Assembly: GCF_014701235.1 (NCBI RefSeq)
Contig: NZ_AP022873.1
Location: 744,001 to 808,000, forward strand
Length of the DNA: 64,000 nucleotides
DNA from: Dissulfurispira thermophila
GTDB lineage: Bacteria; Nitrospirota; Thermodesulfovibrionia; Thermodesulfovibrionales; Dissulfurispiraceae
Direction of reading: 5' to 3'
Every line of letters starts with the position of its first letter. The first letter of the stretch is position 1. The position numbers and the translations under genes were made by a program. Of the stretch, positions 2,398 to 3,470 are shown in pieces. The notes under the pieces are model-generated. The model was not told where the DNA came from. It ran no database searches and saw nothing but the letters and a program-made list of their open reading frames with translations.

Positions 2398-2404
2398 CAA
2401 AAAG

Positions 2405-2462
2405 AGGGAATACCCAAAATCTCAGTTTCCTCAAATATAAAATTGTCTTTTGGGTATTCCCT
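2405..2462. terminator. bidirectional hairpin terminator
   Basis: A perfect 15-bp inverted repeat (arms 2405-2419 and 2448-2462, AGGGAATACCCAAAA and its complement, 28-nt loop) lies between lpxC and the oppositely oriented lysine/alanine micropeptide genes. It probably ends transcription from both sides. Confidence 0.75.
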
Positions 2463-2492: not shown

Positions 2493-2573
2493 TTATTTCT
2501 TCTTTGCAGTCTTTTTTGCTGCAGTCTTCTTTGCTGCAGTCTTCTTTGCTGGAGCCTTCTTTGCTGTTGCCAT
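2493..2573 (-). CDS. 26-residue Lys/Ala micropeptide, histone H1-like
   Basis: On the minus strand an ATG at 2573 opens 26 codons ending in TAA at 2493. The peptide begins MATAKKAPAKKTAAKK, continues with (T/A)AAKK units and ends KKK. It consists only of Met, Ala, Lys, Thr and Pro. A near-perfect Shine-Dalgarno (AAAGGAGGTGA) sits five bases upstream of the ATG. The composition matches the PAKKA-type tails of bacterial histone H1-like DNA-binding proteins (HctA/AlgP type). A nucleic-acid-binding role is inferred only from composition. A second similar gene lies just upstream in the same orientation, and the lpxC-side hairpin terminates the unit. It is far shorter than standard gene finders accept, so it is probably unannotated. 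Confidence 0.72.
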   Translation of the reverse strand: MATAKKAPAKKTAAKKTAAKKTAKKK

Positions 2574-2617
2574 TAAGTTCACCTCCTTTCAATTCTAAAA
2601 TACCTTTAAAGCAGTTA

Positions 2618-2683
2618 TTATTTTTTCTTTGCGGCCTTTTTTGCCGGGGCCTTCTTTGCTGCTGCCTTTTTTGTTGCTGCCAT
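2618..2683 (-). CDS. 21-residue Lys/Ala micropeptide, histone H1-like
   Basis: ATG at 2683 on the minus strand opens 21 codons, beginning MAATKKAAAKKAPAKKAAK and ending in lysines before TAA. The ribosome binding site GGGAGGTGA is strong and six bases from the ATG. It is a shorter paralogue of the gene 44 bases downstream and has the same AAKK/APAKK repeat logic. A promoter-like pair (TTGACC, 17-base spacer, TAGATA) lies upstream at 2723-2751, so both peptides could be made from their own short transcript. Function is unknown. The basic composition suggests binding to DNA, RNA or polyphosphate. Confidence 0.7.
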   Translation of the reverse strand: MAATKKAAAKKAPAKKAAKKK

Positions 2684-2722
2684 GTTATTCACCTCCCTTC
2701 CTATCCCTTAAAGATATGGAAG

Positions 2723-2751
2723 TATCTATAAGGGAACTTTTAAAAGGTCAA
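2723..2751 (-). promoter_or_regulatory. sigma-70-like promoter of the micropeptide pair
   Basis: On the minus strand, -35 TTGACC (2746-2751) and -10 TAGATA (2723-2728) are separated by 17 bases. Predicted transcription starts about 33 bases before the first micropeptide ATG. It overlaps the stop codon of the upstream gene. Confidence 0.5.
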
Positions 2752-3293
2752 ACTCTTCCCAGCAATGTAATCCTTTTTTCTGCGAGGATGCGTTTTAAAG
2801 CAGCATCCTTTTTCTTTTTCTGCTTATATTCTGTTTCTTCAATTACTGTGCAATTTATCCTCTTGCCGAATTTTTTTTCTATGTCGTGTAAGCCGACTAA
2901 AAGTGTTGGGGTGAACGAACCAATTACGATTAAATCAACAGTTGGAGTATCTTCTCCTTCGGCATATGGTCCATAGATAAAGGCAGACTTTATGTCATTT
3001 GCCCGCAAGAGACTTTTTAGCGCACCTGGAAGGCCGAGTGATTTTGCTATAAGGTCTTTTAGCTCTGAAAACAGGGGGGAATTCTTATTTGCATGGAAGT
3101 ATTTTAGATTTGCAACTTTTTCACTTATTACAAGGCCCATTTCTTCGAGTTTGTCGAGTTCTCTTTTTACTCCTGATGGATTTTTTCTTAGAAGCTTTGC
3201 AATCTCTCTCACATAGAATTTTTCTTCAGGGCTGTTTAATAACAGCGCCAGAACATCGGCTCGTATAGATGATGAGAATAGACTTTTAAGCAT
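2748..3293 (-). CDS. winged-helix protein with nucleotidyltransferase-like domain
   Basis: A 181-residue cytosolic protein. Residues 1-80 form an ArsR/MarR-like winged helix (FYVREIAKLLRKNPSGVKRELDKLEE). The second half resembles a Pol-beta-type nucleotidyltransferase (AFIYGPYAEGED...VDLIVIG), but the usual GS-x-ARG start is altered to GPYAEG, so catalysis is doubtful. The family is known in bacteria and archaea as HTH-NTase proteins of unresolved function. I placed the start at 3293 (MLKSLFSSS). It has AAGGAG at proper spacing and a promoter at 3313-3341 whose predicted start lies just upstream; the longer frame from 3344 would begin before the promoter. It may regulate itself or the micropeptides downstream. 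Confidence 0.75.
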   Translation of the reverse strand: MLKSLFSSSIRADVLALLLNSPEEKFYVREIAKLLRKNPSGVKRELDKLEEMGLVISEKVANLKYFHANKNSPLFSELKDLIAKSLGLPGALKSLLRANDIKSAFIYGPYAEGEDTPTVDLIVIGSFTPTLLVGLHDIEKKFGKRINCTVIEETEYKQKKKKDAALKRILAEKRITLLGRV

Positions 3294-3312
3294 TCTTTCT
3301 CCTTTTAGAGAA

Positions 3313-3341
3313 AATATACAACATAATTTTCTTTTTGTCAA
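3313..3341 (-). promoter_or_regulatory. sigma-70-like promoter of the HTH-NTase gene
   Basis: Minus strand -35 TTGACA (3336-3341), 17-base spacer, -10 TATATT (3313-3318), near consensus. Predicted start is about 13 bases from the ATG at 3293, which supports that start codon. Confidence 0.65.
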
Positions 3342-3470
3342 CAAAAAAATTCATTTTTAAAACAAAAGTTGTTTTTTATAGAACATTCTATTTTTGAGAA
3401 CGATTGTTTAATAATTAGATTAGTTTATATTGCGGTCTTAAAGATGGCTTGACTAAAGGGATTTTAAAAA

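What the first reader, a model, noticed from the sequence alone, without database searches (positions are those of the whole stretch)
2493..2683. Two tandem 21- and 26-residue Lys/Ala peptides with ideal ribosome sites
Both minus-strand ORFs have near-perfect Shine-Dalgarno sequences, only Ala/Lys/Thr/Pro after Met, a shared AAKK unit, their own promoter (2723-2751) and a terminator. They look like free-standing tails of histone H1-like proteins. Such short polycationic peptides would escape gene callers. They could be nucleoid, RNA or polyphosphate binders.
Basis: partly seen in the sequence, partly recalled or inferred. Interest (0 to 1): 0.75.

Follow-up and report, generated by a model that had tools for sequence, protein, structure and literature searches.

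The report
Conserved lysine-alanine micropeptides beside ex-antitoxin regulator
Two unusually small genes make peptides built almost only of lysine and alanine, like loose tails of the DNA-packing protein histone H1; they are real, conserved across a bacterial phylum, and always sit behind a gene for a DNA-binding protein that looks like a retired toxin-antitoxin part.

Summary
Window 2618-2683(-) and 2493-2573(-) encode MAATKKAAAKKAPAKKAAKKK and MATAKKAPAKKTAAKKTAAKKTAKKK, behind the two strongest ribosome sites in the window. The peptides are not free-standing genes. They are the last genes of an operon headed by a winged-helix/minimal-nucleotidyltransferase protein (window 2748-3293) of the candidate system PDC-M05. 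In outer classes of the phylum a HEPN gene lies between. In all 111 peptide-bearing loci the nucleotidyltransferase motif GSX10DXD is lost; the 22 HEPN proteins lack RX4HXY; the window's clade has lost HEPN. Outgroups with an intact motif have no peptide. Most likely the peptides are abundant H1-tail-like nucleic-acid binders controlled by a domesticated, catalytically dead toxin-antitoxin regulator. Translation, selection and the operon are well supported; nucleic-acid binding and autoregulation are inferred.

The parts
2618..2683 (-). micropeptide gene 1, 21 aa MAATKKAAAKKAPAKKAAKKK (net charge about +9)
   Evidence: conserved in the genus and in g13; purifying selection
2493..2573 (-). micropeptide gene 2, 26 aa MATAKKAPAKKTAAKKTAAKKTAKKK (net charge about +11); the copy found in the whole family
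   Evidence: about 70-85% DNA identity in relatives
2689..2701 (-). extended Shine-Dalgarno site of peptide 1 (GGAAGGGAGGTGA)
   Evidence: -21.9 kcal/mol, stronger than all 51 window genes; consensus GAAAGGNGGTGA across loci
2579..2590 (-). extended Shine-Dalgarno site of peptide 2 (GAAAGGAGGTGA)
   Evidence: -21.5 kcal/mol
2704..2735 (-). intercistronic hairpin between regulator stop codon and the first Shine-Dalgarno site
   Evidence: 83 distinct intergenic regions, mean folding z -2.0, 66 of 83 below -1, hairpin ends 2-7 nt before the SD core in most, sequences of the arms differ while pairing is kept
2748..3293 (-). PDC-M05A-like regulator, 181 aa: ArsR/MarR-type winged helix plus degenerate minimal nucleotidyltransferase domain (GPYAEGEDTPTVDLI)
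   Evidence: (PDC-M05A E 8e-41); GSX10DXD not present
3313..3341 (-). operon promoter TTGACA-17-TATATT upstream of the regulator gene
   Evidence: 76 of 104 loci have such a site against 14 of 121 control stretches; region visibly conserved into the HEPN-bearing clade
2398..2461 (-). terminator: 14-bp stem, about 29-nt loop, U tract; lies between the peptides and the convergent lpxC
   Evidence: z -4.6; hairpin plus U tract found after the last peptide in 84 of 104 loci, with a lenient-scan background of 55 of 121

Best explanation
The two ORFs are members of a conserved family of translated Lys/Ala/Pro/Thr micropeptides that work like free histone-H1 C-terminal tails: short, disordered or DNA-induced-helical polycations (+9 and +11), made in large amounts, that coat and partly neutralise nucleic acid (nucleoid DNA and/or RNA). 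They are the last genes of an operon transcribed from a strong TTGACA promoter upstream of a winged-helix/degenerate-MNT protein. That protein descends from the antitoxin side of a HEPN-MNT module; it has lost the adenylyltransferase motif and, in this clade, its HEPN partner, and now most likely acts as a DNA-binding (auto)regulator of the operon. The hairpin before the first ribosome site probably shields a processed 3' mRNA piece so that far more peptide than regulator is made. Shown: ORFs, selection on the peptide sequence, co-inheritance, operon architecture, exceptional ribosome sites, loss of both catalytic motifs. Inferred: nucleic-acid binding, high abundance, autoregulation, mRNA processing.
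For: Conservation: 80 of 80 named loci that encode the regulator carry a K/A peptide 30-110 nt downstream of its stop codon with GGNGGTGA; distant classes carry one to three peptides of 15-30 aa after regulator plus HEPN. Coding: 126 synonymous against 39 non-synonymous changes, replacements almost only A/T/P/S/V. Composition of 110 short members: 51% K, 34% A, 7% T, 5% P. Initiation: strongest SD sites of the window. Co-loss: 20 genomes without the regulator have no micropeptide by a pattern that finds 83 of 102 known loci. Regulator: wHTH fold, PDC-M05A E 8e-41, weak hit to HEPN-MNT complex 8xeh. Degeneration: GSX10DXD in 0 of 111 peptide-bearing loci, present in L175, L176, L177, L178, L180, L181 and in four plasmid relatives without peptide. 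Tree: loss of HEPN needs one change. Literature: KPAA-repeat peptides of AlgP bind DNA in vitro (PMC9239181); MntA needs GSX10DXD (PMC7641770).
Against: No binding, expression or localisation data. A 13-aa peptide (MAAKKKAAKKKKK, L089-L091) would bind only weakly. The same genomes also hold a longer H1-like gene (40-93 aa), so why a second, tiny one is needed is unclear. Why this peptide stays tied to one regulator is not explained by generic DNA coating.
Confidence: 0.6

Rival explanations
1. Ribosome- or rRNA-associated micro-protein: the peptide sits on 16S/23S rRNA, working like bacterial bTHX or eukaryotic eL41, both about 25 aa and highly basic.
For: Size, charge and very strong initiation fit an abundant ribosomal accessory; no DNA-specific feature is present.
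Against: Length varies from 13 to 160 aa between related genera, unlike a precise rRNA-pocket peptide; composition K/A/P/T rather than the Arg-rich make-up recalled for bTHX/eL41 (from memory, not tested); linked to a DNA-binding regulator.
Confidence: 0.15
2. Third component of a toxin-antitoxin-like module: the peptide is a toxin or an inhibitor handled by the wHTH-MNT protein (and formerly by HEPN).
For: The regulator is a PDC-M05A homologue; in outer classes the order is MNT, HEPN, peptide.
Against: Peptide persists after HEPN is lost and appears only where both enzymatic motifs are already lost; modules with an intact motif lack the peptide; fixed housekeeping neighbourhood tldD-lpxC-operon, often with tsaC, in most of the window's family rather than the patchy spread of TA loci.
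Confidence: 0.12
3. The conserved thing is the RNA: a structured 3' region or small RNA whose ORFs are translated only to regulate it.
For: Conserved intercistronic hairpin and terminator.
Against: Selection acts on codons, with third positions free; the peptides are the last genes before a terminator and face lpxC tail to tail, so they cannot be leader peptides.
Confidence: 0.06
4. Counter-ion peptide for polyphosphate or another polyanion granule, as AlgP organises polyphosphate granules.
For: Composition like the KPAA domain of AlgP (PMC9239181).
Against: No polyphosphate gene was seen next to the operon in the loci examined; AlgP has a structured N-terminal domain in addition.
Confidence: 0.06
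5. Chance ORFs in a K/A-rich stretch.
For: Low complexity sequence.
Against: Conservation, selection, SD sites and co-inheritance.
Confidence: 0.01

Closest known systems
Bacterial histone H1-like proteins (Chlamydia Hc1/Hc2, Bordetella BpH1, Pseudomonas AlgP C-terminal domain)
   Same: K/A/P/T-only repeats of the AAKK/PAKK kind, length variation by repeat number (Hc2 165-237 aa, PMC2848022), no stable fold expected
   Different: 13-30 aa in most members, about one eighth of Hc2 or less; far below the HC2 cutoff (14.4 against 40 bits); tied to a regulator gene; tandem copies
HEPN-MNT (HepT/MntA) toxin-antitoxin modules and PADLOC candidate PDC-M05
   Same: Regulator matches PDC-M05A at E 8e-41; in outer Nitrospirota classes the next gene matches HEPN PF05168 / PDC-M05B and overlaps by 8 nt
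   Different: GSX10DXD lost in all peptide-bearing loci, RX4HXY absent in all their HEPNs, HEPN absent in the window's clade, extra K/A peptide gene(s)
Very small basic ribosomal proteins bTHX and eL41 (from general knowledge)
   Same: About 25 aa, extremely basic, easily missed by gene callers
   Different: No sequence test made; composition and length variability differ

Membership tests
HepT/MntA type VII toxin-antitoxin system | MNT protein with GSX10DXD adenylyltransferase motif (PMC7641770) | tested here: not met
   0 of 111 peptide-bearing loci, window included (GPYAEGEDTPTVDLI); present in outgroups L175-L178, L180, L181
HepT/MntA type VII toxin-antitoxin system | HEPN toxin gene next to it with RX4HXY | tested here: not met
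   No HEPN in the window operon; the 22 HEPNs of related operons lack RX4HXY; only L172 keeps an R-x4-H
PADLOC PDC-M05 | M05A wHTH-nucleotidyltransferase | tested here: met
   PDC-M05A E 8.2e-41 over residues 3-180
PADLOC PDC-M05 | M05B HEPN protein in the same operon | tested here: not met
   Absent in the window's clade; present in the outer classes L151-L173
Histone H1-like HC2 (PF07382, NF038052) | Score above the family cutoff | tested here: not met
   26-mer 14.4 bits against 40; 21-mer no match; 150-aa relative in L174 38.5 bits
H1-tail-like nucleic-acid-binding peptides (works like) | Lys/Ala/Pro/Thr-only composition with AAKK/PAKK units | tested here: met
   110 short members: 51% K, 34% A, 7% T, 5% P
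H1-tail-like nucleic-acid-binding peptides (works like) | Binds and condenses DNA or RNA | not testable with these tools
   needs binding assays
bTHX / eL41 ribosomal micro-proteins | Bound to the ribosome | not testable with these tools
   needs ribosome purification
ArsR/MarR-type winged-helix regulators (regulator protein) | Winged-helix DNA-binding fold | tested here: met
   AlphaFold2 model pLDDT 88; residues 1-95 match BigR, CzrA, CadC, SqrR at Z 11-12; PF01022 above cutoff

The most novel reading that the evidence does not exclude
A toxin-antitoxin-like module was domesticated: after both enzymes lost catalysis, the toxin was replaced by a 'micro-histone', and the dead antitoxin plus the 13-30 aa polycation now form a phylum-wide two-part chromatin or RNA regulator, among the shortest conserved proteins known in bacteria.
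Probability: 0.3. Interest if true: 0.88.

Novelty: new variant of a known kind. Interest (0 to 1): 0.74.

Why it matters
It would add a family of some of the shortest conserved bacterial proteins, missed by gene callers and domain libraries, spread over much of a phylum. Because length runs naturally from 13 to 160 aa in one orthologous locus, it offers a ready series to ask how short a histone-H1-like tail can be and still work. It also gives a traceable case of a HEPN-MNT module losing both catalytic motifs, then its toxin gene, while keeping its DNA-binding domain and an unrelated polycation partner.

Tried and rejected
Leader peptide or attenuator for lpxC: rejected, the genes converge with a terminator between. 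Internal promoter at 2723-2751: no scanner hit and not conserved. Known RNA element: no Rfam match near the locus. First pattern for the peptide in regulator-less genomes was mis-framed and found nothing even in G000; the corrected one is. First synteny run used out-of-frame queries for lpxC and the regulator; repeated correctly. The third SD-like match in the genome (L003) is a sulfur-relay-type gene, not a micropeptide. Clear palindromic operator upstream of the regulator: conserved A/T-rich promoter but no single palindrome shared by all. MNT half of the model: the Foldseek and VIA lists are filled by the wHTH half, so the C-terminal fold rests on PADLOC, on homologues that match Pfam Polbeta and on one weak HEPN-MNT hit. 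L166 (contig too short) cannot show a peptide. Papers: no description of such peptides found in the open library, which does not cover subscription journals.

Full report
OBSERVATION. On the minus strand, window 2618-2683 encodes MAATKKAAAKKAPAKKAAKKK and 2493-2573 encodes MATAKKAPAKKTAAKKTAAKKTAKKK. Both start codons follow long Shine-Dalgarno sites (GGAAGGGAGGTGA, GAAAGGAGGTGA). Their pairing energy with the 16S 3' end, -21.9 and -21.5 kcal/mol, exceeds that of all 51 longer genes called in the window, whose best is -16.0. A terminator-like structure follows at 2461-2398 (z -4.6). The genes converge on lpxC (1465-2397, +).

CONSERVATION. A DNA search of 60 related genomes brought 30 loci, the window's own among them; 29 of them hold one or two such peptides of 21-29 aa with the same kind of ribosome site. 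In all 29 the nearest gene upstream on the same strand is the same one: a 181-aa protein at window 2748-3293, 58-96% identical to the window's over nearly its full length. lpxC is present in most loci, but where it is not seen the 181-aa gene still is. I therefore used that protein as bait. A scan of 84,980 species genomes returned 80 loci, practically all labelled Nitrospirota/Nitrospirae/Thermodesulfovibrionales. All 80 hold a Lys-rich Ala/Pro/Thr peptide within about 110 nt downstream of its stop codon, 79 by the first length filter and L114 with a 160-aa version. The shortest are 13 aa (MAAKKKAAKKKKK in L089, L090, L091, L094, L096) and the longest 160 aa. Of 253 good genomes of the phylum searched, 102 hold a homologue of the 181-aa protein.

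CODING. In 30 close pairs, 126 codon changes were synonymous and 39 not. Random single changes in these codons would be synonymous in 22% of cases. Third, first and second positions changed 139, 31 and 14 times, and replacements were almost only among A, T, P, S and V. The pairs overlap in part, so these are counts of comparisons, not of independent events. Length differences are whole codons. The peptides are therefore translated and selected for composition and charge.

OPERON. A TTGACA-17-TATATT promoter lies 48 nt upstream of the 181-aa gene in the window (3341-3313). Such a promoter is found within 130 nt in 76 of 104 loci against 14 of 121 control stretches, and the surrounding sequence is visibly conserved even into the most distant clade. 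Between its stop codon and the peptide lies a hairpin (window 2735-2704). Over 83 distinct intergenic regions the mean folding z is -2.0 and 66 are below -1; the hairpin usually ends 2-7 nt before the SD core, with different arm sequences in different genera. Downstream, 84 of 104 loci have a hairpin plus U tract within 130 nt, though the lenient scan also scores 55 of 121 inside genes, so only the long near-perfect stems carry weight.

THE REGULATOR. The 181-aa protein is modelled with pLDDT 88. Residues 1-95 are an ArsR/MarR-type winged helix (BigR, CzrA, CadC, SqrR; Z 11-12). As a whole it matches PADLOC PDC-M05A at 8e-41. PDC-M05 is described as a nucleotidyltransferase plus HEPN protein typical of toxin-antitoxin modules (PMC12988326). 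In outer classes of the phylum (L151-L173) a gene overlapping by 8 nt in nearly all follows, matching HEPN PF05168 and PDC-M05B, and one to three peptides of 15-30 aa come after it. HepT/MntA needs GSX10DXD in the antitoxin and RX4HXY in the toxin (PMC7641770). No peptide-bearing locus of 111 has GSX10DXD and none of the 22 HEPNs has RX4HXY; only L172 keeps R-x4-H. Outgroup proteins L175-L178, L180 and L181 keep GSX10DXD and have no peptide. So do relatives on Bradyrhizobium, Cupriavidus, Sulfuricella and Legionella anisa plasmids. On the tree the HEPN-less, peptide-bearing set is one side of a branch and HEPN loss needs one change, with modest support at the deepest fork and some long branches.

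CO-LOSS. Twenty genomes of the same order (one of them of the same family) without the regulator have no match to a pattern for SD plus micropeptide that recovers 83 of 102 known loci and all three positive-control genomes.

MECHANISM. Shown: selection, architecture, exceptional initiation signals, loss of catalytic motifs in the partner. Inferred: a peptide of charge +9 to +11 with this composition will bind nucleic acid electrostatically, as KPAA peptides of AlgP do in vitro (PMC9239181); very strong initiation and a protective hairpin would make it abundant; the winged-helix protein probably controls the operon. I cannot tell DNA from RNA or polyphosphate. A toxin role is less likely because the peptide outlives HEPN and is present wherever this regulator is, mostly at a fixed housekeeping site.

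CLASSIFICATION. The peptides work most like free H1 tails, but they do not pass the HC2 cutoffs and are not filed as HC2. The regulator is a PDC-M05A homologue, but the window's operon is not a HEPN-MNT toxin-antitoxin system, since two defining features were tested and not met. The combination is, to my knowledge and in the open papers searched, undescribed; subscription papers were not covered.

Noticed in passing
L006:1396-1581 (own genome C1 about 522.2 kb): A second, longer Lys/Thr/Ala protein (61 aa, MKMAVAKKPSVKK...) near a ribosome-hibernation-like gene; counterparts of 40-93 aa occur in related genomes (L196-L203).
   Followed up: partly
L089, L090, L091, L094, L096: 13-residue peptides MAAKKKAAKKKKK kept identical between species, behind full-strength ribosome sites; among the shortest conserved proteins I know of.
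   Followed up: partly
L154, L157, L158, L172: Tandem arrays of three micropeptide genes with separate ribosome sites behind a HEPN gene.
   Followed up: partly
L101-L107, L112, L114, L187: In one sub-clade the peptide expanded by repeats (mostly 74-160 aa), recreating an H1/HC2-like protein in the same locus.
   Followed up: partly
window 2735-2704 and intergenic regions: The C-rich 5' arm of the hairpin could pair either with its 3' arm or with the G-rich Shine-Dalgarno site, so a translational switch is conceivable.
   Followed up: no
window 3310-3400: Promoter region of the regulator is conserved well beyond the hexamers (TTTTTTGTTGACAAA...TTGTTGTATA and an upstream GAATGTTC/CGTTTT stretch); operator not resolved.
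   Followed up: partly
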